Positions 12,137-51,418 of a DNA stretch of 64,000 bases are shown one piece after another. A program made the translations under genes and the position numbers. A model generated the notes under the pieces. The model did not search any database and was not told the origin of the DNA. It saw nothing but the letters and a program-made list of their open reading frames with translations. Within the stretch, counting starts at the first letter, position 1; each line of letters opens with the position of its first letter. The stretch comes from Pseudoclavibacter triregionum (GTDB lineage Bacteria > Actinomycetota > Actinomycetes > Actinomycetales > Microbacteriaceae): positions 558,001 to 622,000 of the forward strand of contig OU365335.1 in assembly GCA_910822395.1 (NCBI GenBank). Direction: 5' to 3'.

Positions 12137-12190
12137 TGCGCGAAATACGGGGGTCCGGGGGATACCCCCCGGACCCCCGTATTTCGCGCA
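12137..12190. repeat. palindromic repeat family A, copy 1 (likely bidirectional terminator)
   Basis: A perfect 25-bp stem with a 4-nt loop (ATAC at 12162-12165). Arms begin TGCGCGAAATACGGGGGTCC. Extending outward gives an imperfect AAG/GTT pair. It lies between the convergent transporter and LysR genes. Copies 2 and 3 are at 16212 and 51356. Confidence 0.85.
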
Positions 12191-12231
12191 GTTCGGTGGG
12201 GCCATCGCGCGGCCGTCGGAAGCGGCCGCGG

Positions 12232-13143
12232 CTAGGGGTGAGCGCGGGCGGCGTCGGCGGCGATGGCGACGAGGGTGCGCAGGCGCGGCGAGCGCGCCGC
12301 GGCGCCGGAGCGGACGGCCGCGACGAGGCTGATGGCGCCCGGCTCGCCGTCCGCGAGCTCGATCGGCACTGCCGCCACCGGCCGCCCCGACTCCGTCACG
12401 TCGCTCGCGGGCACCTGGTAGACGAGCGACCAGCCGAGCCCCTCCCCCACGAGCGAGCGCACGAGCTCGAAGTGGTGGGTGCTCAGCCGCGTCGGCGGCG
12501 CGATGCCCGCGCGGGCGAAGAGCGCCGCGGTGTTCTGCGAGCTCGGGTGGTAGTCGAAGCGCACGAACGGCTCGTCCGCGAGCTCGGACAGGCGCACCGA
12601 GCGCCGCTCGGCGAGCGGATGCCCGTCTGGCAGCAGCGCGTGCGGCCGCCGGGTCGCGATGGGCCGCGCGGCGAGCTCCGGCCCGAGGTCGACGTCGTAG
12701 ACGAGCGCGACATCGAGCTCGCCCTCGCGGAGCGCTCGGAGCAGCTCGTCGTGCTCGTCGTCGACGATCCGCACGCTCGCCTCGGGGTGCTCGGCGTCGA
12801 GGCGGGCGAGGATGCGCGGCAGCAGCGTGCCCGCGAACGGCCCGTAGACGCCGATCGAGACCGGGCCGGCGAGCCCCTGCTCGGAGCCGATCCGCTCCAG
12901 CTCGCGGCTCGCCTCGAGGATGGTCCGCGCCCGCTCGAGCGCGATGCGCCCATCGGCCGCGATGGTCGCGCCGTGCGCGCGGCGACGCACGAGCAGCGCG
13001 ACGCCGAGCGCCCGCTCGAGCTCGCCGAGGGCCGCCGCGATCGTCGACTCCGAGACGTGGCAGGCGCGCGCCGCGCCCGCGATCGAGCCGGCCTCCGCGA
13101 CGGCGTCGAAGTACTCGAGCTGGCGCAGGGTGAAGCTCAGCAT
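12232..13143 (-). CDS. LysR-type transcriptional regulator, divergent from the P450 operon
   Basis: A 303-residue LTTR. The N-terminal HTH (5-64) reads LRQLEYFDAVAEAGSIAGAA then a recognition helix around CHVSESTIAAAL. The effector domain starts with PVSIGVYGPFAGTLLPRIL and shows the usual VDVALVYD-like segment (ELDVALVYDVDLGPEL). It is divergent from the P450 gene with 159 nt between, and that gap holds a two-site repeat suited to LTTR binding, so it probably activates the P450, ferredoxin and reductase genes in response to an aromatic effector. It converges on the MHS transporter. ATG 13143 gives the standard LTTR N-terminus. Confidence 0.9.
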   Translation of the reverse strand: MLSFTLRQLEYFDAVAEAGSIAGAARACHVSESTIAAALGELERALGVALLVRRRAHGATIAADGRIALERARTILEASRELERIGSEQGLAGPVSIGVYGPFAGTLLPRILARLDAEHPEASVRIVDDEHDELLRALREGELDVALVYDVDLGPELAARPIATRRPHALLPDGHPLAERRSVRLSELADEPFVRFDYHPSSQNTAALFARAGIAPPTRLSTHHFELVRSLVGEGLGWSLVYQVPASDVTESGRPVAAVPIELADGEPGAISLVAAVRSGAAARSPRLRTLVAIAADAARAHP

Positions 13144-13221
13144 CCGCCTCCGCTCCCCTCGTCATGGCGTCCGCGTCGTCGCGCGGCGGCGAGGCCCGCC
13201 TCGACAGCATCATCGCCTGAA

Positions 13222-13261
13222 CCGAGGATATCCCTCGGAAACCTTCGCTTATCCCGCGGAA
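13222..13261. promoter_or_regulatory. candidate LysR operator in the lysR-P450 divergent gap
   Basis: CCGAGG (13222-13227) and CCTCGG (13233-13238) form an inverted repeat around ATATC. The sequence TATCCCTCGGAA (13229-13240) recurs as TATCCCGCGGAA (13250-13261), 21 bp on, which places the two copies on one face of the helix. This is the arrangement expected for recognition and activation sites of an LTTR upstream of the P450 start at 13303. Confidence 0.55.
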
Positions 13262-13302
13262 GCGTCGCTGGCAGGCTCATCCCAACGACGAAGGAGTCGC
13301 CC

Positions 13303-14499
13303 ATGACCATCGAACTCGCCCCCGGCACCCCCGTCTCGGAGGTCACGCTCGAGGAGCTGCACCGCGACCCGTTCCCCGCCCTCGCCCGCTTCCGCGAGGA
13401 CACCCCGGTCGTCTACGTCCCGGCCGCGAAGCGGTTCTTCGTGACCCGCTACGAGGACGTCCACCGCGTCGACAACGACCCCGACACCTTCTCGGCCGAC
13501 GAGACCGACTCGCTCATGAAGCGCTCGATGGGCCACTCGATGCTCCGCAGGGACGACCCGGCCCACGCCGTCCAGCGCGCGAGCTACGGCAACGTGCTCA
13601 AGCCCAAGGCGATCACCCAGACGTGGATGGCGGTGTTCCGGGAGTCCTTCGAGCGCTACCTGGCGGACCTCCTCGCCGCGGGCCCCGGCGTCGACCTTGT
13701 GAGCGTCTTCGCCGGCCCTTACGCCGCCGAGAACCTCCGCCGCATCATGGGCTTCGAGAACGCGACGGCGGACGACATGATCCGCTGGAGCCAGACGATG
13801 ATCAACGGCACCGGCAACTACGCCGACGACCCCGAGGTGTGGGCGCTCGCGAAGCGCAGCTCCGAGGAGGTCGATGTCGCGCTCGACGAGATGATCGAGC
13901 GCGTGCGCCGCGAGCCCGACGAGTCGCTCATCTCGCAGATCGTCCACGGCGCCCACGGCGACGTGACCCTCGAGGACACGCGCGCGAACCTCAAGATGTC
14001 CATCGGCGGCGGCATCAACGAGCCCCGCGACGCCCTCACCACCGCGCTCCACGCGCTCTTCCAGCACCGCGACCAGCTCGAGCAGGTCCTCGCCGACCCG
14101 AGCCTGTGGAAGCAGACCATGGAGGAGGCCGTGCGCTGGATCGCCCCGATCGGGATGTACCCGCGCCAGACGACCCGCGAGGTCGAGCTCGGCGGCGTGC
14201 TGCTGCCCGCGGGCGCGAAGCTCGGCGTCGTCGCCCTCTCGGCGAACCGCGACGAGACGGCCTTCGAGCGAGCGAGCGAGTTCGACGTCTTCCGCGAGAA
14301 GAAGCCCCACCTCGCCTTCGGCGGCGGCATCCACTTCTGCGCCGGCGCCTGGATCGCCCGCGCCGAGGTCGGGCAGGTCGCGCTGCCGGGCCTGTTCGAG
14401 CGGCTCCCGAACCTTCGCCCCGACCCGGACCAGGAGGCGCAGGTCGCCGGCTGGGTGTTCCGCGGGATGACGTACCAGCCGGTCGTCTGGGACGCGTAG
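13303..14499 (+). CDS. cytochrome P450, CYP255/GcoA-like
   Basis: Soluble bacterial P450 of 398 residues. The haem-binding loop is HLAFGGGIHFCAG with axial Cys346. The EXXR pair is in EEAVRW, and the PERF-like region is in DVFREKKP. The I-helix reads IGGGINEPRDALTTAL: the acid (Glu240) is present but the usual Thr is replaced by Pro241. From memory this EP pair, the N-terminus VSEVTLEELHRDPF and the end WVFRGMTYQPVVWDA resemble GcoA (CYP255), the guaiacol O-demethylase. A Shine-Dalgarno AAGGAG lies 6 nt before ATG 13303. It is the first gene of an operon with ferredoxin and reductase. Likely O-demethylation or hydroxylation of a small aromatic compound; the substrate is not known. Confidence 0.88.
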   Translation: MTIELAPGTPVSEVTLEELHRDPFPALARFREDTPVVYVPAAKRFFVTRYEDVHRVDNDPDTFSADETDSLMKRSMGHSMLRRDDPAHAVQRASYGNVLKPKAITQTWMAVFRESFERYLADLLAAGPGVDLVSVFAGPYAAENLRRIMGFENATADDMIRWSQTMINGTGNYADDPEVWALAKRSSEEVDVALDEMIERVRREPDESLISQIVHGAHGDVTLEDTRANLKMSIGGGINEPRDALTTALHALFQHRDQLEQVLADPSLWKQTMEEAVRWIAPIGMYPRQTTREVELGGVLLPAGAKLGVVALSANRDETAFERASEFDVFREKKPHLAFGGGIHFCAGAWIARAEVGQVALPGLFERLPNLRPDPDQEAQVAGWVFRGMTYQPVVWDA

Positions 14500-14623
14500 C
14501 GGGGCTGCGACTCCGCCTGTGCCAGCGCCTGGGCCTTCCCCCGCCGCCGGCGCCTCCTCCCTCAGCCATCCGGCGCCGCCCCATGACGCGGCCGCGCCCA
14601 TCCACCAGAAACGAACCATCACC

Positions 14624-14944
14624 ATGCCCAAGATCACCTACCTCCATCCCTCCGGCGAGCGCGAGACGCTCGAGGTCGCCGAGGGCACCTCGGTCATGCG
14701 CGCGGCGCTCGAGCACTCCGTCGACGGAATCGTCGGCGAGTGCGGCGGCCAGCTCATGTGCGCCACCTGCCACTGCTTCGTCGACGGCCCGCTCGGCGAG
14801 GGCGCCGAGCGCTCGGACGACGAGGAGGAGATGCTCGAGTGCACCTCCGAGCCCGCGACCGCGCGCAGCCGCCTGAGCTGCCAGCTCGTCGCCGGTCGCG
14901 ACTTCGATGAGCTCGAAGTCGAGCTGCCCCAGTCGCAGGTCTAG
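14624..14944 (+). CDS. 2Fe-2S ferredoxin, putidaredoxin/rhodocoxin type
   Basis: A 106-residue adrenodoxin-type ferredoxin. The cluster ligands are Cys40, Cys46, Cys49 and Cys86, in the pattern C-x5-C-x2-C-x36-C (ECGGQLMCATCHCF and LSCQL). An acidic patch, SDDEEEMLE, which docks the reductase and P450 in this class, lies at 64-72. It is placed between the P450 and the reductase, with the reductase start 2 nt after its stop, so it is the electron carrier of this three-part system. ATG 14624 begins the family N-terminus; the 124-nt gap after the P450 has no terminator. Confidence 0.93.
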   Translation: MPKITYLHPSGERETLEVAEGTSVMRAALEHSVDGIVGECGGQLMCATCHCFVDGPLGEGAERSDDEEEMLECTSEPATARSRLSCQLVAGRDFDELEVELPQSQV

Positions 14945-14946
14945 CG

Positions 14947-16179
14947 GTGGACATCGTCATCCTCGGCGCCGGCCATGCGGGCGTCCAGGCGGCGGACTCG
15001 CTGCGCGAAGAGGGCGTCGAGGGCCGGATCGTCCTCGTCGAGCGCGATCTCGCGCTGCCGTACCAGCGCCCGCCGCTCTCGAAGGACGGACTGGCGGGCG
15101 GCCTCGACCCGCTGCCGCTCCGAGGCGCCGAGTGGTACGGGGATCGCGGCGTCGAGCTGCGGCTCGGCGTGGAGGCGCTCGGCATCGACGTCGACGCGCG
15201 GAAGGTCGTCACCTCGGCAGGGACGATCGCGTACGACGAGCTCGTCCTCGCGACGGGCGCGGCGGCGCGGCCCTTCGGGGGGCCGGGTGCCGGGCTGAGG
15301 GGCGTGCACGCGCTCCGCACGGCCTCGGACGCCTCGGCGCTACGCGACGCGCTCGAGACCGCCTCGCGCGCCGTCGTCATCGGAGCCGGGTACATCGGGC
15401 TCGAGTTCGCGGCGGTCGCGGCGGCTCGCGGGCTCGACGTGACCGTCGTGGCGCGGAGCGGGCGGATCCTCCGGCGCTCGGCGTCGGCGCCGGTGGCCGC
15501 ACGCCTGGCCTCGGGTCTCAAGGGGCTCGGGGCGCGGCTCGCGCTCGGCTCGACGCCGGTCGAGCTCGTGGCGGACGCCTCGGGCGAGGCCGTCGCCGGC
15601 GTCAGGCTCGAGTCGGGCGAGCTGCTCCCCGCGGATCTCGTCGTCGTCGGCATCGGGATCGCGGAGCCGGGCCATCTCGCCGCGGCAGCGGGCTTCGACG
15701 AGCCGTCCGGCGTGCGGGTCGACGCCGAGTTCCGGACCTCCGCGCCGGGAGTGCGGGCGATCGGCGACCTCGCGGTGTTCCCCTCGCCCCTCGACGGCGC
15801 GATGATCCGCGTCGAGAGCGTGCAGCACGCGGGCGACTCGGCCCGCTGCGTCGCGCGCTCGATCGCGGGGCGCGGCTCGGCGTACGACGCGACGCCGTGG
15901 TTCTGGAGCGTGCAGGGCGGGCTCAAGCTGCAGACGGCGGGGATCGTCGGCGAGGGCCGAGATCTCGTCGTCCGCGGCGATCTCGAGGGCAAGTTCAGCG
16001 TCTTCGCCTTCGAGGGGTCGCGACTCGCGAGCGTCGAGTCGATCGCCTCTCCGGCCGACCACCTCGCCGGCCGCGCGCTCGTCGCCGCAGGCGGCGGCGG
16101 GCTCACGCGCGAGCAGGCCGCGGACCCGGGCTTCGATCTCCGCGGCTTCGCGAAGGGGCTCGCGGCTCCTGCGGCCTAG
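14947..16179 (+). CDS. FAD-dependent ferredoxin reductase
   Basis: NAD(P)H:ferredoxin reductase of 410 residues, of the putidaredoxin reductase, rhodocoxin reductase type. FAD-binding GxGxxG is at the N-terminus (VILGAGHAGVQAADSLR), followed by LPYQRPPLSKDGL; the NADH-binding Rossmann motif is VVIGAGYIGLEFAAV near residue 145, and the second FAD contact is VRAIGDLAVF. The C-terminal reductase domain follows with ATPWFWSVQGGLKLQ. The start is GTG 14947, 2 nt after the ferredoxin stop. It passes electrons to the ferredoxin for the P450. A family A palindrome follows. Confidence 0.93.
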   Translation: MDIVILGAGHAGVQAADSLREEGVEGRIVLVERDLALPYQRPPLSKDGLAGGLDPLPLRGAEWYGDRGVELRLGVEALGIDVDARKVVTSAGTIAYDELVLATGAAARPFGGPGAGLRGVHALRTASDASALRDALETASRAVVIGAGYIGLEFAAVAAARGLDVTVVARSGRILRRSASAPVAARLASGLKGLGARLALGSTPVELVADASGEAVAGVRLESGELLPADLVVVGIGIAEPGHLAAAAGFDEPSGVRVDAEFRTSAPGVRAIGDLAVFPSPLDGAMIRVESVQHAGDSARCVARSIAGRGSAYDATPWFWSVQGGLKLQTAGIVGEGRDLVVRGDLEGKFSVFAFEGSRLASVESIASPADHLAGRALVAAGGGGLTREQAADPGFDLRGFAKGLAAPAA

Positions 16180-16211
16180 CCGCCCGCTTCCCTACCGCGC
16201 CTGCCCCACCT

Positions 16212-16274
16212 AACTGCGCGAAATGCGGGGGTCCGAGGGGATATCCCCCTCGGACCCCCGCATTTCGCGCAGTT
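16212..16274. repeat. palindromic repeat family A, copy 2 (likely bidirectional terminator)
   Basis: Near-perfect 63-bp palindrome, arms beginning AACTGCGCGAAATGCGGGGG, centre GGGGATATCCCC, with a single extra C in the right arm. It lies between the reductase gene and the convergent tRNA-Ser. Against copy 1 the stem changes A-T to G-C at arm position GAAA(T)(A/G)CG on both sides. Confidence 0.85.
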
Positions 16275-16328
16275 GCGTGAGGGGACCACGGGCTCACGCG
16301 CGCGCCGAGGGCCGCGGGCGCATGACGA

Positions 16329-16370
16329 AGGCCCCCGACTCCCGCGGAATCTCGCGGAACTCGGGGGCCT
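16329..16370 (-). terminator. terminator of tRNA-Ser
   Basis: AGGCCCCCGA (16329-16338) pairs with TCGGGGGCCT (16361-16370), with an inner CCGCG/CGCGG stem. It begins 6 nt downstream of the tRNA 3' end on the minus strand. Confidence 0.65.
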
Positions 16371-16375
16371 CGTGG

Positions 16376-16466
16376 TGGCGGTGACGGTGGGATTTGAACC
16401 CACGGTAGGGGGTTGCCCTACACGACTTTTCGAGAGTCGCACCTTCGGCCGCTCGGACACGTCACC
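16376..16466 (-). tRNA. tRNA-Ser(CGA)
   Basis: Read on the minus strand: acceptor GGTGACG with GTCACC, long variable arm GTAGGGCAACCCCCTAC, anticodon loop CTCGAAA giving anticodon CGA, T-loop TTCAAAT, and an encoded 3' CCA after discriminator G. All class II tRNA-Ser features are present. Confidence 0.95.
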
Positions 16467-16569
16467 GTCGTCCATCATAAGCAGGTCGAAGATGCCGGGG
16501 CAAGTCGGGGTTTCGAGGGGGGGCGCCGGCGGGCGTGTCGGAGGGCCTGGGGGTCGGATGGCCTGGGGC

Positions 16570-16608
16570 GGTGGTTTCGAGGCGGCCTGCGGCCGCTCCC
16601 CAACCACC
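16570..16608. repeat. palindromic repeat family B, copy 1 (forward)
   Basis: Starts GGTGGTTTCGAGG and ends CCCCAACCACC, with GGCCTGCGGCC between. Forward means TTTCGAG on the left and CAACC on the right. It is paired with an inverted copy 22 nt on. Confidence 0.8.
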
Positions 16609-16630
16609 TCAGGCTCGGGACGCGCGCGCA

Positions 16631-16674
16631 GGTGGTTGAGGAGCGAGCGCCGCAGCGAGCGTCTCGAAACCACC
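16631..16674. repeat. palindromic repeat family B, copy 2 (reverse)
   Basis: Starts GGTGGTTGAGGAGCGAGCG and ends CGTCTCGAAACCACC. It is the reverse orientation of copy 1 and lies 17 nt downstream of the lipid kinase stop. Confidence 0.85.
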
Positions 16675-16691
16675 GATCGACCAGCCGCTGC

Positions 16692-17816
16692 CTACCCGCG
16701 CGCCGTCCCGCGCAGCAACCTCCACGCCGCCGGCACGACCTCGAGCTCGACGCGGCCGCCCACCGCGAGCGGCTCGCCGTCCGCGTAGATCGGCACGCCC
16801 GCCGGCACCTCGACGACGAGCCGGCGCGCCCGCCGCTCCTCGAAGAACGGCAGGCTCCGGTGCATCCCCGCGAACGCGAGCGGGAAGAAGCTCGCGAGCG
16901 TCTTCCGCGCGACCGGCCGCACCATCGCGAGGTCGAGGAGGCCGTCGGCGAGGTCGGCGTCCGGCGTGATCCGGATGCCGCCGCCCACGGACGTCCCGTT
17001 CATCGCCGCGACGAGGACGTGGCTCGAGATCGCCGGTTCCGCCCCGTCGATCCCGATGCGGAACGGGATGGCCCGCAGCCGCCGCAGCGACTGCGCGAGC
17101 GCGACGACGTAGCGCGTCGTCCCGCGCAGTCGCGTGAGCTCGTTCGCGCGCCGATTCACCTCGGCGTCGAAGCCCATGTTCACCGAGTTGGCGGCCCACC
17201 CGCGGCGTCCGTCGACGGTGACGCGGATGGCGTCGATCGCGCGGATCGAGGCATCCGGGTGCTCGAGGCCGGAGAGGATCGCCTCGATGGCATCCGCGGG
17301 GTTCCGGCGCGGGATGCCCATCGCCCGCGCGAAGTCGTTGCCGGAGCCCGCGGGCACGATGCCGAGCGGCACCTCGGTGCCGGCCACGAGGCTCACGCCG
17401 AGCTGCACCATCCCGTCGCCGCCCCGGACGATGACGGCGTCGAGCCGCTCGCTCCGCGCGATGGCCCGGCACGCCGCCGCGAGCTCGGCGGGGGTCGCCG
17501 CCTCGGGCACGATCGCCTCGACCTGCATGGAGCGGCGCTCGAGGATGCGGCGCCTCGCCTCGGCGAGGTGCTCGGCGGCGCCCATCCCCGAGTGCGGGTT
17601 GAGGGCGACGAGCACGCGGCGACGCGGTCCGCCCTCCCCCACCTCCGTGCCGAGGAGCGGCGTCTCGACCGGGACGCCGGCGAGCTCGGTGGGCCGGAGG
17701 GCCGAGCCGGGCGGGGCGATCCGGGAGGTGCCGGCGTCGGCCGCGGACGGCAGGCCCGCGTGCGCGCCCGCGCGGCGGAACGGCAGCTCGGGCCGGCAGC
17801 GGCGTCGATGCGGCAT
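16692..17816 (-). CDS. diacylglycerol kinase-like lipid kinase
   Basis: A 374-residue protein of the DagK/YegS/sphingosine kinase fold, which phosphorylates diacylglycerol or a related lipid. The kinase core starts near residue 65 (RRRVLVALNPHSGMGAAEH). The nucleotide-binding loop is VIVRGGDGMVQLG (GGDGM instead of the common GGDGT), then VPLGIVPAGSGNDFARAMG. The C-terminal beta-sandwich has GGGIRITPDADLADGLLDL and PIYADGEPL. The first 60 residues are Arg/Pro-rich and not part of the fold, so a later start is possible. It is a single gene, divergent from radA. Confidence 0.85.
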   Translation of the reverse strand: MPHRRRCRPELPFRRAGAHAGLPSAADAGTSRIAPPGSALRPTELAGVPVETPLLGTEVGEGGPRRRVLVALNPHSGMGAAEHLAEARRRILERRSMQVEAIVPEAATPAELAAACRAIARSERLDAVIVRGGDGMVQLGVSLVAGTEVPLGIVPAGSGNDFARAMGIPRRNPADAIEAILSGLEHPDASIRAIDAIRVTVDGRRGWAANSVNMGFDAEVNRRANELTRLRGTTRYVVALAQSLRRLRAIPFRIGIDGAEPAISSHVLVAAMNGTSVGGGIRITPDADLADGLLDLAMVRPVARKTLASFFPLAFAGMHRSLPFFEERRARRLVVEVPAGVPIYADGEPLAVGGRVELEVVPAAWRLLRGTARG

Positions 17817-17888
17817 CGTCCGGCCCCTCTCGCTCGATCCGGCGGCCGACGGCGCCCGGCCGCGCCCGGGAATGTCCGAGGTCGAGCC

Positions 17889-17894
17889 TACTCT
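17889..17894 (+). promoter_or_regulatory. -10 box of leaderless radA
   Basis: TACTCT ends 6 nt before ATG 17901, so transcription should begin at or next to the start codon. Confidence 0.6.
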
Positions 17895-17900
17895 GGAGAC

Positions 17901-19283
17901 ATGGCCCGGCCCCGAGAGAAGACGCCCCCGTACGTGTGCACGGAGTGCGGCGCGACCTCCCTGAAGTGGCTCGGCCAGTGCCCCGAATGCCAGGCCTGGG
18001 GCACCGTCGTCGACCGCTTCGAGTCACGCACCGCCTCGCGCGCGCAGCCGGCCGCGATCCCCGTCGGCCACGAGGCGCGGCCCATCACCGAGACCCCGAT
18101 CGAGCGGGTCACCCACCGCCCGACCGGCATCGGCGAGCTCGACCGCGTGCTCGGCGGCGGGATCGTCCCGGGCGCGGCCATCCTCTTCTCGGGCGAGCCG
18201 GGCGTCGGCAAGTCGACGCTCCTGCTCGAGACGGCGTCCCGCGTCGCCTCGACGGGCGCCCGCGTGCTCTACGTCTCGGCCGAGGAGTCGGTGAGCCAGG
18301 TGCGGCTGCGGGCCGAGCGCACGAACGCGCTCCACCCGACGCTCTTCCTCGCGTCGGAGACCGACCTCGCGACGCTGCTCGGGCACGTCGAGCAGGTCGA
18401 TCCGGCGCTCCTCATCGTCGACTCGATCCAGACGGTGGCGTCATCGGAGGTCGACTCGCTCGCGGGGCAGCCGAGCCAGGTGCGCGAGGTGGCGTCGGCG
18501 CTCATCCGGCTCGCGAAGTCGCGGAACCTGCCGGTCATCATCGTCGGCCACGTGACGAAGGACGGCCAGGTCGCGGGCCCGCGCCTGCTCGAGCACCTCG
18601 TCGACGTCGTCGCGCACGTCGAGGGCGACCGGCAGACGGCCCTGCGCTTCGCGCGCACCCTGAAGAACCGCTTCGGCCCGACCGACGAGGTCGGCTGCTT
18701 CGAGATGACCGGCGCCGGGATGCGCGAGGTGCCCGACCCCTCGGGCCTGTTCCTCTCCGAGCGTGGGACGCCCGTGAGCGGCACCTGCGTCACCGTCGCG
18801 CTCGAGGGCCGGCGAGCGCTGCCGGTGGAGATCCAGGCGCTCGTCGTGCCGACCCAGGCGCCGAACCCGCGCCGGGTGACGAACGGCGTCGACGCGAGCC
18901 GCGTCGCGATGCTCCTCGCCGTGCTCGAGCGGCGGGTCGGGATGAAGCTCGCCCAGTGCGACGTGTACGTGTCGACCGTCGGGGGCGTGAAGCTCGCGGA
19001 GCCCGCCGCCGACCTCGCCATCGCGGCGGCGATCGCCTCGGCGGCCGCGAACCGGCCGATCCGGCCCGAGGCGGTCGTGTTCGGCGAGGTCTCGCTCGCG
19101 GGCGAGATCCGGCGCGTGGCGCAGGCGAAGCTGCGGGCGCAGGAGGCGGCGCGCGTCGGATTCCGGACGGCGATCGACACCTCGGCGGGCACGGTGTCGG
19201 ATGCCCTCCGCGAGGCGCTCATGCCCGGCGGCGCGAGCCGCGGGCCGGCGTCCGAGGCGCCGCCGGCCGCGCTCGCCGAGTAG
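17901..19283 (+). CDS. radA: DNA repair ATPase RadA (Sms)
   Basis: Helicase-like ATPase that promotes branch migration in recombinational repair. Length 460 residues, as expected. The N-terminal zinc finger has Cys13, Cys16, Cys27 and Cys30 (CTECG..CPEC). Walker A GEPGVGKST is at 98-106, and the RadA-specific KNRFG motif starts at Lys255. The C-terminal Lon-like domain follows, with VGGVKLAEPAADLAIAAAIA. ATG 17901 is preceded directly by a -10-like TACTCT and no leader. It is monocistronic; the 510-nt gap after it is full of repeats. Confidence 0.97.
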   Translation: MARPREKTPPYVCTECGATSLKWLGQCPECQAWGTVVDRFESRTASRAQPAAIPVGHEARPITETPIERVTHRPTGIGELDRVLGGGIVPGAAILFSGEPGVGKSTLLLETASRVASTGARVLYVSAEESVSQVRLRAERTNALHPTLFLASETDLATLLGHVEQVDPALLIVDSIQTVASSEVDSLAGQPSQVREVASALIRLAKSRNLPVIIVGHVTKDGQVAGPRLLEHLVDVVAHVEGDRQTALRFARTLKNRFGPTDEVGCFEMTGAGMREVPDPSGLFLSERGTPVSGTCVTVALEGRRALPVEIQALVVPTQAPNPRRVTNGVDASRVAMLLAVLERRVGMKLAQCDVYVSTVGGVKLAEPAADLAIAAAIASAAANRPIRPEAVVFGEVSLAGEIRRVAQAKLRAQEAARVGFRTAIDTSAGTVSDALREALMPGGASRGPASEAPPAALAE

Positions 19284-19310
19284 CCGGAGCCTCGGCCGGG
19301 CGTCAGCAGT

Positions 19311-19378
19311 TCAGAATCCGCAGATACGGGGGTGATGTCCCGAATACGAGGGCATCTCGCGCTCTTTGCGGATTCTGA
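19311..19378. repeat. palindromic repeat family F, copy 1
   Basis: Arms TCAGAATCCGCA (19311-19322) and TGCGGATTCTGA (19367-19378), with a partly paired middle (GATGTCCCG against GGGCATCTCG). It lies 27 nt after the radA stop. A second copy is at 33541. Confidence 0.75.
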
Positions 19379-19384
19379 GGTGTC

Positions 19385-19425
19385 GGTGGTTTCGAGACGC
19401 GGCCTTCGGCCGCTCCTCAGCCACC
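19385..19425. repeat. palindromic repeat family B, copy 3 (forward)
   Basis: Starts GGTGGTTTCGAGACGCGGCC and ends GCTCCTCAGCCACC. It is the left flank of the C element at 19452. Confidence 0.85.
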
Positions 19426-19451
19426 TCGACGCGCGGAGGCCCGAGGCGGCC

Positions 19452-19571
19452 GGCACAGTCTGCAGGAGATCCTCGCGGTCAGCTTCGGTGGCCGTGAGAT
19501 CGTCCGCGCCAGCATGCGGATCGTGGACGCACCCGGGGCGGGGTCCCGGCCAGCGTCCTGCAAAGTGTGCC
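19452..19571. repeat. repeat family C, copy 1 (120 bp, inverted ends)
   Basis: Ends GGCACAGTCTGCAG and CTGCAAAGTGTGCC are inverted with 12 of 14 bases matching. It is flanked by inverted family B copies on both sides, giving a composite of about 240 bp (19385-19625). Confidence 0.7.
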
Positions 19572-19590
19572 GACCTTCAGACCTGCCGAC

Positions 19591-19625
19591 GGCTGAGGAG
19601 CGAGCGGAGCGAGCGTCTCGAAGCC
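19591..19625. repeat. palindromic repeat family B, copy 4 (reverse)
   Basis: Starts GGCTGAGGAGCGAGCG and ends CGTCTCGAAGCC. It is the right flank of C copy 1. The bases that follow, ATCCGGTGACCG, recur after the B copy at 33484. Confidence 0.8.
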
Positions 19626-19670
19626 ATCCGGTGACCGAGCCGGCATCGGCGCTGCACTTCGTCTGTTCAC

Positions 19671-19724
19671 TACCGAAACGGGCGTCCGCTACCGACATCG
19701 TGCTAGCGGACGCCCGAATCGGTA
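19671..19724. repeat. palindromic repeat family D, copy 1
   Basis: The left arm starts TACCGAAACGGGCGTCCGC and pairs with the right arm TAGCGGACGCCCG...CGGTA at 19 of 21 positions around a 12-nt loop. Copy 2 is at 27613. Confidence 0.75.
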
Positions 19725-19746
19725 GCGGATGCCGGCCCGCACGCGA

Positions 19747-19782
19747 CGAGGCCCCCGGATCCGCGGGAATCCGGGGGCCTCG
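19747..19782 (-). terminator. terminator of the 5'-nucleotidase gene
   Basis: CGAGGCCCCCGGAT (19747-19760) pairs perfectly with 19769-19782 across an 8-nt loop. It lies 11 nt beyond the nucleotidase stop on the minus strand. Confidence 0.75.
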
Positions 19783-19793
19783 ATCAGCTCAGG

Positions 19794-22956: not shown

Positions 22957-22963
22957 GCCTGCC

Positions 22964-22969: not shown

Positions 22970-23011
22970 GCGGCGGCGGCCGGGCGGACGGCCGGGGCGC
23001 GCGGGACTGGA

Positions 23012-41167: not shown

Positions 41168-41784
41168 CGGCCGGGCTCCGCGAGGCCGCAGGCGGCGTTC
41201 GCAGGCGCCTCGCCGCCGGCGGCGCCGTCGAGGACGACCCGGACGGACCGCTCCTCCGCCTCCGCTGCCTCGCGGTCGACGACGATCCGCCCCACCGGGT
41301 CGACTCGGTCGGCCGCCGCCGCGCGCAGCTCGGCGATCGGGCCGCGGCCGGCGAGGACGGCGTCGGGCTCGAGGTCCATCCACGGGGCGAGCACGAAGGC
41401 GCGGTCGCCCGCGCGCGGGTGCGGCAGGGTGAGCACCCGCGTCGACTGTTCGAGCCCGCCGAAGTCGACGATGTCGAGGTCGAGGGTGCGGCTGCCCCAG
41501 CGCACCTGGCGCTGACGGCCGGATTCGTCCTCGAGGGCCCGGAGCACGTCGAGCAGCGCGCGGGCCGAGAGCGTCTCGGCGACCTCGAGGAGCGCGCAGG
41601 CGTTGAGGTAGCGGGGCTCGGTGTCGTCGATGCCCGTGAGGGTGAGGGCGGGCGTCTCGTAGACGCGCGAGCCGGCGACGACCGCGATCTCGGGGCGGGC
41701 GTCGAGGTCGCGGAGGGCGGACTCGATCGTCGCGGCGCGGTCGCCGAGGTTCGCGCCGAGGGCGAGGATGACGCGGCGGGTCAC
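41164..41784 (-). CDS. folK: 6-hydroxymethyl-7,8-dihydropterin pyrophosphokinase (HPPK)
   Basis: Transfers pyrophosphate from ATP to hydroxymethyldihydropterin. Core 1-165: LALGANLGDRAATIESALRD, the pterin pocket YLNACALLEV, and the ATP/Mg signature RWGSRTLDLDIVDFGG with LPHPRAGDRAFVLAPW. The last 40 residues are a variable tail. ATGA overlap with folB. Confidence 0.95.
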   Translation of the reverse strand: MTRRVILALGANLGDRAATIESALRDLDARPEIAVVAGSRVYETPALTLTGIDDTEPRYLNACALLEVAETLSARALLDVLRALEDESGRQRQVRWGSRTLDLDIVDFGGLEQSTRVLTLPHPRAGDRAFVLAPWMDLEPDAVLAGRGPIAELRAAAADRVDPVGRIVVDREAAEAEERSVRVVLDGAAGGEAPANAACGLAEPGR

Positions 41785-42215
41785 GGCCGGGCCTCCCCCG
41801 CCTTCGCGGCGGGCTCAGAACCCGACTCGAGCTCGTCGCGGCGGCGCAGGATGCTCACCGAGAGGTCGCCGAAGTCGAGCGGCACGGGCGCCTGCGGCTT
41901 GTGGATCGTCACGCGCGCCGCCTGGACGCCGCGGAACCCGAAGCACACGGCGACGAGGCGCTCGGCCACCGTCTCGAGGAGGTCGACGGGCTCGGCGGCC
42001 GCGCTCGCGTGGATGGCGCGCATGAGCTTGCCGTAGTGGACGGTGTCCTCGAGGTCGTCAGAGCGGGCGGCGGCGCGGGTGTCGGCCCACACCTCGCAGT
42101 CGACGTAGAAGTCCTGGCCCTGCTCGCGCTCGTGGTCGTGGACGCCGTGGTGCGCGCGGACGTGGAGGCGGCGGAAGCCGATGCGGTCGAGCTCGGGCTC
42201 GGGCAGGCCGATCAT
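41781..42215 (-). CDS. folB: dihydroneopterin aldolase
   Basis: Splits dihydroneopterin into hydroxymethyldihydropterin and glycolaldehyde. Length 144. Signature IGFRRLHVRAHHGVHDHERE at the start, the catalytic Glu in this segment, VHYGKLMRAIHA and the catalytic Lys in VTIHKPQAPVPLDFGDLSV. It overlaps folP upstream and folK downstream by 4 nt each. Confidence 0.95.
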   Translation of the reverse strand: MIGLPEPELDRIGFRRLHVRAHHGVHDHEREQGQDFYVDCEVWADTRAAARSDDLEDTVHYGKLMRAIHASAAAEPVDLLETVAERLVAVCFGFRGVQAARVTIHKPQAPVPLDFGDLSVSILRRRDELESGSEPAAKAGEARP

Positions 42216-43885: not shown

Positions 43886-43894
43886 GGGAGCGTC

Positions 43895-45868
<1,974 letters not shown>

Positions 45869-46199
45869 GCGTCGGATGGGCGAGTGGCGAGCTCGCGACC
45901 TTCTCGTGAAACGGGGCCGGATGACGGCGCGCAGGCCCGTCAGGACGGCCCCGCGCGAATAGGCGACAGCGTAGCCGAGGGCCGCCGGGCGCCTCCCCCG
46001 TGTTCGCTCCGGGCCGAGCGGGGGCGCAGGTGGTTCCTGCTGCGGCACGCTTCGCAGGAGATTTCGCAGCGCGGTGGCCTCTCGGCCGGCGCGATCCGCA
46101 TGTCCGCGCGGATCACCTCGCGCTGTCCGTCCGCCCGCACTGCAGATTGCGCCAGGCCCGCGGAGGGGGGCGCCCGGGCGGCTCGCGGAGTGCCGGGTC

Positions 46200-46205
46200 T
46201 AGGGT
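46200..46205 (+). promoter_or_regulatory. -10 box of leaderless RNB-family gene
   Basis: TAGGGT, 7 nt before GTG 46213. It argues for that GTG rather than the in-frame GTG at 46204, which would lie upstream of the transcript start. Confidence 0.55.
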
Positions 46206-46212
46206 GGCGCTC

Positions 46213-47691
46213 GTGCGAGGAGTCCATGCCCACGAGCTCACCTTCGAGGACCTCCGCGAGGAGTTCCGCCTCCCGACCGGCTTCCCGGACGAGGTCGAGG
46301 CGGCGGCGAGCGCGGCCGTCGACCGCTTCGCCGGCGAGCGCCGCGACGCCCGCGACATCCCCTTCGTGACCATCGATCCGCCCGGATCCCGCGACCTCGA
46401 CCAGGCCGTCCACGTCGTCGAGAAGGACGGCGGCGGCTGGACGCTGCACTACGCCATCGCCGACGTCGGCGCCTTCGTGCCGCTCGGCTCGCCCATCGAC
46501 CTCGAGGCCCGCAAGCGCGGCCAGACCGTCTACGTGCCGGACGGCTCCGTGCCCCTCCATCCGCTCGCGCTCTCCGAGGGCGCCGCGAGCCTCCTCCCCG
46601 ACGAGGACCGCCCCTGCGCGCTCTGGACGATCGAGTGCGGGCCGGACGGCGTCATCTCCTCCGGCACCGTCGAGCGCGCCGTCATCCGCTCGACCGCCCG
46701 GCTCGACTACGCGACCGTGCAGTCGTGGGTCGACGAGGGACGCGAGCTGCCCGAGGCGGTCACGGGGCTCAAGAGCTTCGGCGAGGCGCGGCGGGCGCTC
46801 GCCGTCAGGCGCGGCGCGATCGAGCTCGAGCTGCCGGCTCAGGAGATCGCGCGCGGCGACGACGGCAGGTGGGCCGTCCGGCTCGAGGCGCGCACCGAGG
46901 CGGACGCCTGGAACGCGGAGTGCTCGCTCGCGACCGGCCACGTCGCCGCGACGATCATGATGCGCGGGAAGGCGGGCATCCTGCGCACGCTGCGCGCCGC
47001 GACGCCGGAGTCGGAGCTCGAGTTCCGGAAGGCGGCCGCGGCCCTCGGCCTTTCCTGGCCGGATGGCGTCGCGCCGGGCGAGTTCCTCGCAGGGCTGCCG
47101 CGCGGCGACGTCCGCACGCTCGCGATCAACACGGCCGCGACGCGGCTGCTGCGCGGAGCCGACTACCTCGCCTTCGACGGCGAGGCGCCGAACGACGCGG
47201 ACGCCTGGCACGCCGGCGTCGGCCAGGTCTACGCGCACGCGACCGCGCCGCTGCGCCGGCTCGTCGACCGCTTCGTCATCGAGACCTGCCTCGCGATCGA
47301 GGCCGGCCAGGAGGTGCCGGCCGAGCTGCGCGCCTGCTACGACGAGGTGCGGCAGACGATGAACGACACGAACCGCTCGGCCTCGGCCGTCGAGCAGGCC
47401 GCGCTCGACAAGGGCGAGGCCGTCGTGCTGCAGGATCGCGTCGGCGAGGCCTTCCAGGTCGCGGTGACGCGCGCGGCGAAGCGGGAGGGCACGAAGACGC
47501 GCGCGGCGGAGGTGTTCCTCGTCGAGCCGCCGGTGTTCGCGAAGTGCGAGGGCGACTCGCCCGCGGGGGCGGTCGTCTCGGCGACGCTCGTCGAGGCCGA
47601 TCCGGCGAAGCGCGAGGTCCGCTTCCGCGCGGCCGAGGCCGCGGCCCCTGCCGTTGCGGGCGCACCGGCCGCGGATACTCCGCCCGCCTAG
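46213..47691 (+). CDS. RNB-domain (RNase II family) ribonuclease
   Basis: 3'-5' exoribonuclease of 492 residues, the compact actinobacterial form. After a short N-terminal region (ELTFEDLREEFRLPTGFP) the RNB domain begins with the catalytic acidic cluster DIPFVTIDPPGSRDLDQAVHV and continues with HYAIADVGAFVP, KRGQTVYVPDGSVPLHP, and YAHATAPLRRLVDRFV near residue 345. The C-terminal part resembles an S1-like fold. It is inserted on the opposite strand between hpt and ftsH, which are normally adjacent. Its stop shares CTAG with hpt. Confidence 0.88.
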   Translation: MRGVHAHELTFEDLREEFRLPTGFPDEVEAAASAAVDRFAGERRDARDIPFVTIDPPGSRDLDQAVHVVEKDGGGWTLHYAIADVGAFVPLGSPIDLEARKRGQTVYVPDGSVPLHPLALSEGAASLLPDEDRPCALWTIECGPDGVISSGTVERAVIRSTARLDYATVQSWVDEGRELPEAVTGLKSFGEARRALAVRRGAIELELPAQEIARGDDGRWAVRLEARTEADAWNAECSLATGHVAATIMMRGKAGILRTLRAATPESELEFRKAAAALGLSWPDGVAPGEFLAGLPRGDVRTLAINTAATRLLRGADYLAFDGEAPNDADAWHAGVGQVYAHATAPLRRLVDRFVIETCLAIEAGQEVPAELRACYDEVRQTMNDTNRSASAVEQAALDKGEAVVLQDRVGEAFQVAVTRAAKREGTKTRAAEVFLVEPPVFAKCEGDSPAGAVVSATLVEADPAKREVRFRAAEAAAPAVAGAPAADTPPA

Positions 47692-48311
47692 ACCTCCGGG
47701 TGCTCGCTCGGGCCGGCGCCCTCCTCGAGCTGCTCGCGCTCGGGCTCGACCGTCTCCTCGCCGCCGTAGACGTGCGGCTTGAGCACGACGACGTCCCGCA
47801 GGTGGCGGTACGCCTCGTCGTAGTCGAGGCCGTAGCCGACGACGAACTCGTTCGGCACGTCGTAGCCGATGTACTTCACGGGCACGTCCGACTTGAGCCG
47901 CGAGGGCTTGCGCAGGAGCGTGCAGATCTCGACCGAGTTCGGGCCGCGCGACTCGAGGTTCGACTTCAGCCACGAGAGCGTGAGGCCGGAGTCGATGATG
48001 TCCTCGACGATGAGGACGTCCTTGTCCGTGAGATCCGTGTCGAGGTCCTTCACGATGCGGACGACGCCGGACGAGGTCGTGCCCGAGCCGTAGGACGACA
48101 CGGCCATCCAGTCCATCGTGACGGGGATGCGCAGCTCGCGCGAGAGGTCCGAGACGACCATGACGGCGCCCTTGAGCACGCCGATGAGCAGCGGCTCGCG
48201 GCCCTCGTAGTCGCGCTCGATCTCGCGGGCGAGCTCGGCCAGGCGGGAGCGGATCTGCTCCTCGGTGTAGAGGACCTCGCGGACGTCGTCGCGGCAGTCG
48301 TCGGCTCGCAT
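47688..48311 (-). CDS. hpt: hypoxanthine phosphoribosyltransferase
   Basis: Salvages hypoxanthine and guanine with PRPP. Length 207, with a 25-residue acidic tail. PRPP-binding loop VLIVEDIIDSGLTLSWL is in the middle, ahead of it LLIGVLKGAVMVVSDL and MAVSSYGSGTTSSG, and the base-binding PNEFVVGYGLDYDEAYRHL near the end. Its ATG is 3 nt after the tilS stop, so it is co-transcribed. Confidence 0.95.
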   Translation of the reverse strand: MRADDCRDDVREVLYTEEQIRSRLAELAREIERDYEGREPLLIGVLKGAVMVVSDLSRELRIPVTMDWMAVSSYGSGTTSSGVVRIVKDLDTDLTDKDVLIVEDIIDSGLTLSWLKSNLESRGPNSVEICTLLRKPSRLKSDVPVKYIGYDVPNEFVVGYGLDYDEAYRHLRDVVVLKPHVYGGEETVEPEREQLEEGAGPSEHPEV

Positions 48312-48314
48312 GCG

Positions 48315-49562
48315 CTACTCCTGGGGCTGGGTGGGGGGCTGGTAGGCGGGGGCGTCGCCGGCGGCGGCAGGCGCGTCGCCCGCTGCGCCGGCGGGCCCGG
48401 ACGCGGCGGTGTGGGGCGCGGACCCGTCGGCGCCGTCGGCCGCGGGCGCCGCGATCGTCTCGCTGGGCAGCGGATCGAAGATCTGCCGCGCGCCGCCGCG
48501 GCGGGTGCGGCGCTCCGCCTCGGCGGCCTCGGCGTCGCGGGGCGCCTCGTCGAGGTCATCCGCGTGCGGCTCGACCGCGCCGAAGAGGATGCGCCCGCGC
48601 TCGCGCTCGACGCGGATGCCCGGGAGGTCGACGGGCCCCTGCCCGCGCCATTCGGTCACGAGGGCGGCGACGGCCATCGTGTGGCGGCGCGAGAGCGAGA
48701 CGCCGAAGCCCTGCTGGGCGACGATGCGGCAGATGCGCTGGCGCAGGGCCGGGGGCTGGGCGACGAGGCCGCCGACGTCGATGGAGATCCGGCCGTCCTC
48801 GTTCTCGTCGATGATCTCCCGGGCCCACTCCATGGCGAGCTCGTCGAGGGTCTCGGCGTCCTCGCGGAGGGTCGTCGCGGTGCGGGCGAGCGCGACGGCG
48901 ATGCCGGGGCCGAGCTCCTCCTCGAGGAGCGGCAGGATGCGCGAGCGCACGCGCACGCGGAGGAACTGCGGATCGTCGTTGTGCGGGTCGCGCCAGGGCT
49001 CGAGGCCCATGTCGGCGCAGGCATGGTGCGTCTGCTCGCGTCGGATGCCGAGCAGCGGGCGCAGGAGGGGGCCGTTCACGGCGGCCATGCCGTGGAGGCT
49101 CGTGCCGCCGGATCCGCGGGCGAGGCCGAGGAGGACGGTCTCGGCCTGGTCGTCGAGGGTGTGCCCGAGGAGGAGGGCGACGGCGCCGAGCTCCTCGCGG
49201 GTGGCCTCGAGCGCCTCGTAGCGGGCGGTGCGGGCGGCGGCCTCGGGGCCGGATCCCTCGTCGCGGACGTCGACGCGGACGACCATGACGGGGTCGAGGC
49301 CGAGCTCGCGGGCCTGCTCGGCGGCGCGCTCGGCGACCTCGTCGGATCCGGGCTGGAGCTGGTGGTCGATGATGACGGCGCCGGCGCGGATGCCGAGGCG
49401 GGGCGCCTCGACGGCGGTCGCGGCCGCGAGCGCGAGGGAGTCGGGGCCGCCGCTCAGCGCGACGAGGACGAGCTCGCCCTCCCGGGCGTCGGCCTTGAGG
49501 GCCACGCGGACGGCGCGGCGGATGTCCGCGACGGGGGGCGTGAGGCGAGGGCGATCGGGCAC
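48315..49562 (-). CDS. tilS: tRNA(Ile)-lysidine synthase
   Basis: Modifies C34 of tRNA-Ile(CAU) to lysidine. Length 415. PP-loop SGGPDS at 37-42; GHTLDDQAETVLLGLARGSG and PLLGIRREQTHHACADMGLEPWRDPHNDD are typical. The C-terminal part beyond residue 320 is low in complexity (Ala/Gly/Pro) and may be disordered. The start is GTG 49562, 6 nt from a TAGGCT -10 box. In related genomes dacB usually precedes this gene; here 419 nt of palindromic repeats lie instead. Confidence 0.95.
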   Translation of the reverse strand: MPDRPRLTPPVADIRRAVRVALKADAREGELVLVALSGGPDSLALAAATAVEAPRLGIRAGAVIIDHQLQPGSDEVAERAAEQARELGLDPVMVVRVDVRDEGSGPEAAARTARYEALEATREELGAVALLLGHTLDDQAETVLLGLARGSGGTSLHGMAAVNGPLLRPLLGIRREQTHHACADMGLEPWRDPHNDDPQFLRVRVRSRILPLLEEELGPGIAVALARTATTLREDAETLDELAMEWAREIIDENEDGRISIDVGGLVAQPPALRQRICRIVAQQGFGVSLSRRHTMAVAALVTEWRGQGPVDLPGIRVERERGRILFGAVEPHADDLDEAPRDAEAAEAERRTRRGGARQIFDPLPSETIAAPAADGADGSAPHTAASGPAGAAGDAPAAAGDAPAYQPPTQPQE

Positions 49563-49568
49563 GTCGAC

Positions 49569-49574
49569 AGCCTA
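49569..49574 (-). promoter_or_regulatory. -10 box of leaderless tilS-hpt operon
   Basis: TAGGCT on the minus strand, 6 nt before GTG 49562. Confidence 0.6.
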
Positions 49575-49620
49575 GCGGCGCGGCCGGGGACGGCCAGGGG
49601 CGGGGCGCCGCTGGCGGGCG

Positions 49621-49691
49621 TCCCAGAGATTCGCCATGGTGACAGCGGAGCCGTATAGGGGATCGCTGATCACCTAGACGATTTTCTGGGA
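49621..49691. repeat. palindromic repeat family G, copy 1
   Basis: Imperfect palindrome with ends TCCCAGA and TCTGGGA and a conserved core ATTCGCCATGGTGACAGCGG. It is almost identical in its middle to copy 2, 152 bp on. Confidence 0.75.
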
Positions 49692-49773
49692 AGGTTCGGC
49701 GCTGCCGGCACGGGTGGGGCTCGGTCGGGGCCGGGCCGCCTGCAGGACCGGGCTGGGTCCGGGCCCTGGCTTT

Positions 49774-49840
49774 CCAGAAATTCGCCATGGTGACAGCGGA
49801 GCCGTATAGGGGCTCGCTGATCACCTAGACGAATTTCTGG
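49774..49840. repeat. palindromic repeat family G, copy 2
   Basis: Ends CCAGAAATTCG and CGAATTTCTGG pair perfectly; in copy 1 the same stretch is mismatched. The core TCGCCATGGTGACAGCGGAG is shared with copy 1. Confidence 0.78.
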
Positions 49841-49873
49841 GCGGCCGGGGCGCTCCGGCGGGCCGGAAAGCAG

Positions 49874-49931
49874 CTCAGGTCGCAGTTTCCGCTCCAGGTG
49901 AGGACACCTGGAGCGGAAACTGCGACCTGAG
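49874..49931 (-). terminator. palindromic repeat family H, copy 1 (likely terminator)
   Basis: Perfect 27-bp stem with 4-nt loop AGGA; arms begin CTCAGGTCGCAGTTTCCGCT. It lies 50 nt beyond the stop of the PLDc_N gene. Copy 2 is at 61548 with compensated changes. Confidence 0.8.
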
Positions 49932-49981
49932 GAGTGCGGGGCTCGGCCGCGCCCAGCTGGCGGCGCTCCGGCGGGCCGCGG

Positions 49982-50485
49982 CTAGCGCTCGAGCTTGCGG
50001 CCGCCGAGGAAGTAGACGATGGGGCCGATCCAGTTGATGGTCTGGGCACCGTACCAGAGCGCCTTCGGGCCGTTGAGCTGCGACTCGTCGCGGCGGGCGA
50101 TGTCGACGATCGCGGCGACCGCGAGGCCGACCTGCGCGAGGCCGATGATCGACACGGCGGCGAGCTTCGGGGCGGAGGCGCGGAGGACGTTCCCGAGCGC
50201 GCGTCCTGCGGCGGGAGCGACGGCCGAGACGGCGGCGGTCGCGAGACCGACGAGGACGCCGCCGTTCGCGTCGCCGGCCGGGGCCGAGGCGTGGCGGGCG
50301 CTCGAGTCGGCCGTGCCGGCGAGCGGGCGGACGTCACCGCGGCAGGAGGTCGTGCCCTTGCCGGACGACTTGCCCGACGCCTTGCCCGAGCGCGCCGAGG
50401 CGTTCGCCGGGGCGTGCGCGGCGCCGTCGAGGGCGTCGCCGTGGAACTGGCCGGATCCGAAGGAGGTCGCGCGATGCTTCGTCAT
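49982..50485 (-). CDS. PLDc_N-type small membrane protein
   Basis: A 167-residue protein. The first 65 residues are hydrophilic Ser/Gly/Lys/Ala-rich sequence (SARSGKASGKSSGKGTTSC). A hydrophobic helix (about 75-95) and the C-terminal PLDc_N module follow: IIGLAQVGLAVAAIVDIARR, NGPKALWYGAQTINWIGPIVY, with the typical Trp residues and short end GGRKLER. This module usually marks a small membrane protein of unknown role. Located between tilS and ppa, where dacB would be expected. Confidence 0.75.
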   Translation of the reverse strand: MTKHRATSFGSGQFHGDALDGAAHAPANASARSGKASGKSSGKGTTSCRGDVRPLAGTADSSARHASAPAGDANGGVLVGLATAAVSAVAPAAGRALGNVLRASAPKLAAVSIIGLAQVGLAVAAIVDIARRDESQLNGPKALWYGAQTINWIGPIVYFLGGRKLER

Positions 50486-50761
50486 GCGGCCCACGCTCGC
50501 ACAGCCATCCTGGGGAAGCCTCCGAGCGACGGCGACGGATGCTCGCGAAGCCGGCCCCCTCAGGCTGGCCATCCGCCCAGGCGCCCGCGGTCCGATCCGT
50601 CCGCCCCGGCGCCCGCAGGCCCGGCCATCCGCTGCGGCGCCCGCGGCCCTGGCTGTCGGCCCCGGCGAGCGCGGGGCGGCTCGGCGCCCCCGGCCATCCG
50701 CGCCCCGCCCGCCGAGTAGCCTGGGATCCACATCATCCGCAACCGGACACAGGAGCACGGC

Positions 50762-51250
50762 ATGGGCACGTACGACGTCGTCATCGAGATCCCCAAGGGC
50801 AGCCGCAACAAGTACGAGGTCGACCACGAGACTGGTCGCGTCTACCTCGACCGCGTCCTCTTCACCCCGTTCATGTACCCCGTCGACTACGGCTTCTTCG
50901 AGCACACGCTCGCCGACGACGGCGACCCGCTCGACGCGCTCGTGCTCCTCGAGGAGCCGGTGTTCCCGGGCGTCGGCCTCAAGGTGCGTCCGGTCGGCGT
51001 GCTCCGCATGGCCGACGAGGCGGGCGGGGACGACAAGGTCCTCTGCGTCCAGTACAAGGACCCGCGCTGGCAGCACATCCAGTCGCTCGACGACGTCGAC
51101 CAGTCGACGAAGGACCAGCTCCAGCACTTCTTCGAGCACTACAAGGACCTCGAGCCCGGCAAGTGGGTCAAGGTCGAGGCGTGGGGCTCGGCAGAGGAGG
51201 CCGAGGAGATCATCGAGCGCTCGCTCAAGGCCTACAAGCCGGCGAACTAG
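50762..51250 (+). CDS. ppa: inorganic pyrophosphatase, family I
   Basis: Hydrolyses pyrophosphate. Length 162. Active-site pieces are [43 protein letters not shown] (the Asp cluster), and DDKVLCV. A Shine-Dalgarno AGGAG lies 7 nt before ATG 50762, with a TAGCCT -10-like box 40 nt further up. It converges on the M23 gene with two palindromes between. Confidence 0.98.
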
Positions 51251-51299
51251 CTCGGGCCCGCGGCGCCGGCCGCCGCCAGAGCCCCCGCAGGCAGACAGC

Positions 51300-51335
51300 C
51301 CGAAGGCCCCGATCCGCGCGGATCGGGGCCTTCGG
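51300..51335 (+). terminator. perfect 36-bp palindrome after ppa
   Basis: The arm CGAAGGCCCCGATCCGC (51301-51317) is followed directly by its reverse complement; the flanking C and G add one pair. It is 50 nt after the ppa stop. Confidence 0.8.
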
Positions 51336-51355
51336 CGTCCGGGCGAGCGCCACGC

Positions 51356-51418
51356 AACTGCGCGAAATGCGGGGGTCCGAGGTGGATATCACCTCGGACC
51401 CCCGCATTTCGCGCAGTT
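51356..51418. repeat. palindromic repeat family A, copy 3 (likely bidirectional terminator)
   Basis: Perfect stem with arms AACTGCGCGAAATGCGGGGG...GAGGTG and CACCTC...AGTT around loop GATAT. It lies 17 nt beyond the stop of the M23 gene and after ppa, again between convergent genes. Confidence 0.87.

What the first reader, a model, noticed from the sequence alone, without database searches (positions are those of the whole stretch)
12137..51418. Family A palindromes: three copies, always between convergent genes, with compensated stem changes
Copies at 12137, 16212 and 51356 share arms of the type AACTGCGCGAAAT(A/G)CGGGGGTCC. Each lies between two convergent transcription units (MHS/LysR, reductase/tRNA-Ser, ppa/M23). 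Differences between copies occur on both arms at once: A-T to G-C next to the G-run, and the inner part GGGGG/CCCCC against GAGGTG/CACCTC. Paired change is strong evidence that the folded form matters. The stem is far longer than a terminator needs, and the outer 12 bp are invariant, so the element may also be copied as a unit or bound by a protein.
Basis: seen in the sequence. Interest (0 to 1): 0.8.

Follow-up and report, generated by a model that had tools for sequence, protein, structure and literature searches.

The report
REP-like palindromes behind stop codons
The three long mirror-image DNA repeats belong to a small scattered family that sits mostly just behind gene ends, much like known bacterial REP repeats, and their matched changes can be explained by DNA copying as well as by a working RNA fold.

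Summary
The palindromes are real: 60, 63 and 63 nt, 25-29 bp stems, far beyond chance. A model of the family finds ten copies in the 2.36 Mb genome: five convergent, four tandem, one divergent, so "always convergent" is wrong. The stronger rule is nearness to stop codons: 8 of 10 lie within 60 bp of one (null 20%). A related family in congener G003 follows the same rule (25 of 30 examined, null 16%). Congeners also carry unrelated palindrome families.

Paired changes are weak proof of a functional fold. In G003 the variable block is identical on both arms in 21 of 30 copies (8.6 if arms are paired at random), and 8 of the 9 discordant copies differ by 2-5 bases. This fits template switching that copies one arm onto the other, without proving it. 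U-tracts are weak or absent.

Best reading: lineage-specific REP-like palindromes, spread by an unknown route, homogenised at DNA level, acting as bidirectional 3'-end hairpins. They are not canonical REPs (no Y1/RAYT gene found, no conserved GTAG/CGTC tag, longer) and not canonical U-tract terminators. New variant of a known kind.

The parts
12134..12193 (.). family A palindrome, 60 nt, 25-bp inner stem, one-sided mismatch AAGTG/CAGTT near the outer end
16212..16274 (.). family A palindrome, 63 nt, 29-bp stem
51356..51418 (.). family A palindrome, 63 nt, 29-bp stem
10593..12011 (+). transporter gene (Sugar_tr/MFS_1), left neighbour of the first copy
12232..13143 (-). LysR-type regulator gene, right neighbour of the first copy; its stop lies 38 bp from the palindrome
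14947..16179 (+). pyridine nucleotide-disulphide reductase gene; its stop lies 32 bp from the second copy
16376..16466 (-). tRNA-Ser gene, right neighbour of the second copy
50762..51250 (+). inorganic pyrophosphatase gene (ppa), left neighbour of the third copy
51300..51335 (.). separate ordinary hairpin between ppa and the third copy
51435..53282 (-). M23 peptidase gene (start as called by my caller); its stop lies 16 bp from the third copy

Best explanation
Family A is a small, lineage-specific family of dispersed 60-63 nt palindromes that behaves like a REP family. Copies were spread as whole units by a process that I could not identify. They are found mostly just behind stop codons, where they are often the first strong hairpin of the 3' untranslated region. 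There they most likely act as bidirectional 3'-end hairpins (stopping or slowing RNA polymerase, blocking 3' exonucleases) without a good U-tract. The arms stay matched mainly because DNA template switching or conversion copies one arm onto the other. Shown: the unit, ten copies, no genic copy, closeness to stop codons, a related family in G003 with the same rule, multi-base arm differences there, no Y1/RAYT gene found in the genus. Inferred: transcription of the hairpin, its effect on RNA ends, template switching as the cause, and the route of spread.
For: Ten copies with common ends. 8 of 10 within 60 bp of a stop codon, null 0.20, p = 9e-5; F1 in G003 25 of 30, null 0.16, p = 1e-15, convergent 13 of 30 (null 0.13), divergent 3 of 30 (null 0.32), 12 of 14 tandem copies nearer the upstream stop than the downstream start. 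At the ppa/M23 junction only G000 of nine genomes has family A, so the copy is lineage-specific. At the PMT gene G000 has family A and G003 the unrelated family F2 behind the same gene. Arms: 21 of 30 F1 copies identical in the block against 8.6 for random pairing (0 of 5000); discordant copies differ by 1, 2, 3, 4, 4, 4, 4, 5, 5 bases. REPs sit in the same places (PMC3733652, section 15 read).
Against: No transcription data. One copy is divergent, at no stop codon. U-tract poor. Six of nine relatives show no scored hairpin behind PMT, so these elements do not always fill a conserved terminator place. Multi-base arm differences are also common under random pairing of arms (64% against 89% observed, 9 cases), so block copying is not proven. 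Only ten copies, few for a REP family. No mobility or empty site in close strains could be tested.
Confidence: 0.5

Rival explanations
1. Selected RNA element: a bidirectional terminator whose paired changes were kept by selection on the fold.
For: Position behind stop codons; covariation 0.180 against 0.064 in shuffles, 0 of 500; A/T-rich step next to the inner GC stem; first scored hairpin behind the M23 stop in G000, where six of eight relatives have an ordinary hairpin starting within 80 nt and two an imperfect one seen by eye.
Against: U count 1-4 of 8 in A and 0 of 7 in 23 of 30 F1 copies on each strand; terminator scans flag none of the three; ppa keeps a separate hairpin beside the copy; 8 of 30 F1 copies carry 2-5 mismatches in the block; one divergent copy; stems longer than a terminator needs.
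Confidence: 0.2
2. Purely selfish or neutral dispersed repeats without function; they persist behind stop codons only because insertion elsewhere harms genes or promoters.
For: Lineage-specific families, decayed copies at 772 kb, a divergent copy, the same distribution as REPs.
Against: Closeness to stops within tandem gaps (12 of 14 F1 copies nearer the stop) is stronger than mere avoidance of genes requires, though promoter avoidance may give it. No mobilising enzyme found: no Y1 gene in 10 genomes.
Confidence: 0.25
3. DNA binding site for a protein (gyrase, nucleoid protein or similar) that works behind transcription units, with the conserved outer bases as half sites.
For: Outer AACTGCGCGAA and inner stem are near-invariant in eight copies while three pairs between them vary.
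Against: Only ten copies in 2.36 Mb, and the sequence differs in G003 and G009, so a protein would have to change its site from species to species. Not testable with these tools.
Confidence: 0.05

Closest known systems
REP elements, GTAG- and CGTC-tagged (PMC3733652; abstract, passages and section 15 read)
   Same: dispersed extragenic palindromes, mostly convergent or tandem, close to 3' ends of genes
   Different: here 60-63 nt with long near-perfect stems instead of 20-40 bp; no conserved tag; no Y1/RAYT gene found in the genus; only ten copies
Intrinsic terminators
   Same: GC-rich hairpin shortly behind stop codons, shared by convergent genes
   Different: no clear U-tract, sequence conserved between unrelated sites, one copy divergent
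MITEs
   Same: short, dispersed, inverted-repeat structure
   Different: no flush target duplication longer than 2 nt at 10 copies; no parent element found in the own genome
Template-switch-maintained hairpins (PMC8794818; abstract and start of introduction read)
   Same: multibase paired changes, long matched stems
   Different: described there for histories of RNA genes; here dispersed intergenic repeats

Membership tests
REP element | dispersed extragenic palindrome | tested here: met
   10 copies, none genic by my gene caller
REP element | located behind genes, mainly convergent or tandem | tested here: met
   9 of 10 convergent or tandem; 8 of 10 within 60 bp of a stop
REP element | length 20-40 bp | tested here: not met
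   60-63 nt
REP element | GTAG or CGTC tag at one end | tested here: not met
   GTAG/CTAC at 0 of 10 copies; CGTC/GACG within 10 nt of an end at 2 of 10, at no fixed place
REP element | cognate RAYT (Y1_Tnp) gene in the genome (GTAG type) | tested here: not met
   PF01797: 0 of 10 genus genomes; 5 of 14 control genomes positive. The own genome is about 90% complete
Intrinsic terminator | GC-rich hairpin shortly behind a stop codon | tested here: met
   8 of 10 within 60 bp; MFE of three copies
Intrinsic terminator | U-tract after the stem | tested here: not met
   1-4 U in 8 nt after the inner stem in A, 0 of 7 in 23 of 30 F1 copies per strand; scans flag none of the three
Intrinsic terminator | RNA 3' ends at the site | not testable with these tools
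   no transcript data
MITE | target-site duplication | tested here: not met
   flush direct repeats of 0-2 nt at 10 of 10 copies
MITE | parent element with the same terminal repeats | tested here: inconclusive
   own genome: 13 of 14 arm matches with at most one mismatch belong to palindromes, one is a lone match; a parent may exist elsewhere or be lost

The most novel reading that the evidence does not exclude
A class of long, nearly perfect 3'-end palindromes in this bacterial family that spreads without RAYT. It changes sequence from species to species, is kept matched by arm-to-arm DNA copying, and supplies or replaces transcript ends as plug-in units. Matches in 17 genomes outside the genus hint at a shared frame GAATnCGGGGGTCCGAG across the family.
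Probability: 0.25. Interest if true: 0.6.

Novelty: new variant of a known kind. Interest (0 to 1): 0.4.

Why it matters
Paired changes in stems are routinely read as proof of RNA function. Dispersed palindromes with dozens of copies in one genome, as F1 in G003, let one ask directly whether pairing is kept by selection or by template switching. They are also a REP-like population in genomes in which no Y1/RAYT gene, the transposase linked to GTAG REPs, was found.

Tried and rejected
RAYT-driven REP: rejected as membership, no Y1_Tnp match in 10 genus genomes. Known RNA family: only four tRNA matches in the window at Rfam gathering scores. Phage or plasmid origin: no blastn match for one copy (16200-16290) in 50,697 phage and 72,556 plasmid records; no exact pattern match in viral contigs. 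Family A elsewhere: the pattern gives 3 stretches in the species-genome collection, each a single arm without a visible second arm. Composite mobile unit of the pair 1423032/1424146: the stretch between them holds a 294-aa ORF with DUF559/MTES_1575 matches, no transposase seen. Integron attC sites: considered from memory and dropped (recalled, no call). The test for other hairpins in element-bearing gaps is not used as evidence, because segments under 44 nt were scored 0 by construction. One of the flanking proteins (L047:1984-3061) was given in a wrong frame and its empty result means nothing. Nine literature searches listed no title or abstract start that describes these repeats; that covers only the held library and these terms.

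Full report
What is there. The three palindromes lie at 12134-12193, 16212-16274 and 51356-51418. Two have 29-bp perfect stems. The first has a 25-bp perfect inner stem, a shorter inner part and a one-sided mismatch near its outer end. In 400 kb sampled evenly from the genome 8 hairpins reach score 18: three of family A, two of a second family B, three others. In three shuffles of that sample (1.2 Mb) none does; the best scores 15.

How many. A covariance model of eight copies finds ten places in the genome, each with best E below 1e-10; the next match has E = 0.7 (150 of 248 first-look candidates were scored). Two of the ten, 42 bp apart at 772 kb, are more decayed. First bases in the genome: 570134, 574212, 609356, 731130, 772480, 772585, 1423032, 1424146, 1522654, 1562963.

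Where. Genes were called with my own codon-usage caller trained on the window; it is not validated against an annotation. Five copies are convergent, four tandem, one divergent, none genic; I checked the divergent one by its ORFs. The null places an element at a random intergenic base of the 400-kb sample: convergent 22%, so 5 of 10 is a weak excess (p = 0.049). Closeness to a stop codon is the strong signal: 8 of 10 within 60 bp against 20% (p = 9e-5; 8 of 9 if the 772-kb pair is counted once).

Relatives. In an even 400-kb sample of G003 the hairpin search at score 16 lists 30 hairpins. By my reading 7 are of a related family F1 and 9 of an unrelated family F2; model R2 shows two more F1 copies in that sample. 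G009 has two families. A core pattern of F1 gives 34 places in G003. I examined the 30 that came with loci: 13 convergent, 14 tandem, 3 divergent; 25 of 30 within 60 bp of a stop codon, null 16%. In tandem gaps 12 of 14 lie nearer the upstream stop than the downstream start.

Orthologous junctions. ppa is followed by a convergent M23 gene in all nine genomes in which ppa was found, and only G000 has family A there. It lies at 17-79 nt behind the M23 stop. Six of eight relatives have a scored hairpin (9 or more) that starts within 80 nt of that stop; in G009 and G008 an imperfect one is visible by eye but not scored. At the PMT gene family A lies 22 nt behind the stop in G000, and G003 has an F2 palindrome 58 nt behind the same gene. 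G009 has an ordinary hairpin with a short T-run at 95 nt, G006 a weak one at 69 nt, and the other six relatives no scored hairpin within 200 nt. So different palindrome families can settle at the same 3' end, but they do not always fill the place of a terminator that relatives keep.

Paired changes. In family A five of 29 pairs change on both sides in eight copies, covariation 0.180 against 0.064 in shuffles (0 of 500; these shuffles ignore relatedness). Three neighbouring pairs carry 9 of the 13 such cells. In F1 the corresponding 7-nt block is identical on both arms in 21 of 30 copies, against 8.6 for arms paired at random (0 of 5000). The nine others differ by 1, 2, 3, 4, 4, 4, 4, 5 and 5 bases. 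Step-by-step compensation predicts mostly single differences; copying of a block from one arm to the other, or between copies, predicts what is seen. Random pairing of arms already gives 64% multi-base differences against 89% observed, so this is a fit, not a proof. Template switching is a published source of multibase compensatory changes (PMC8794818, abstract and start of introduction) and of arm homogenisation (PMC8604942, start of abstract in a listing only). Selection on the fold is not excluded for family A.

Terminator test. The segment next to the inner stem holds 1-4 U in 8 nt in A; in F1 it holds none in 7 nt in 23 of 30 copies on each strand. The terminator scans flag none of the three. 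Perfect inverted repeats are generally enriched 50-80 bp behind bacterial stop codons (PMC13155455, passages), and in E. coli most such repeats there belong to intrinsic terminators (PMC6060812, abstract), so position alone is compatible with termination.

Known kind. REPs sit in the same places (PMC3733652, abstract, passages and section 15), but length, tag and transposase do not fit; that paper's main text has no word beginning with 'actinobacter'. Model R2, built from 20 copies of three species, matches 20 of 398 genomes of the family at E below 1e-4, 17 of them outside the genus (only 13 candidates scored per genome, so misses are likely). A shared frame is visible by eye in several. As a control, families B and F2 do not match R2 above 18.8 bits, but an unassigned palindrome at window 4212 reaches 36.8 bits, the level of the weaker hits, so the wider family is suggestive only. 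No call names the organism; that it belongs to the Microbacteriaceae is my guess from recall.

Noticed in passing
49874-49931 and 61548-61611: A second palindrome family (B, CAGGTCGCAGnTTCCGCTCCAGGT arms), 12 arm matches forming six pairs in the genome, also with paired changes between copies; of five with a scored hairpin one is convergent and four tandem.
   Followed up: partly
4212-4261: A 50-nt perfect palindrome between convergent genes, 36.8 bits with model R2: a possible far relative of family A.
   Followed up: partly
16570-16674, 19385, 23038, 53538-53840, 55518-55670: Another interspersed repeat (GGTGGTTTCGAGACG with GGTTGAGGAGCGAGCG), 18 matches with up to three mismatches in the window, some perhaps chance.
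   Followed up: no
G003 F1 copies L162, L165, L168, L177: The two main arm types look like flipped versions of one block (CGAAAACC against GGTTTTCG), as an inversion inside the stem would give.
   Followed up: partly
L136-L140, downstream of ppa in G001, G002, G005, G007, G008: The same junction holds other imperfect palindromes, with outer arms like TGTCCAACATGAGTGCA: perhaps one more repeat family in these congeners (by eye).
   Followed up: no
L050:1721-2602: A DUF559/MTES_1575-type gene lies between two family A copies 1.05 kb apart.
   Followed up: partly
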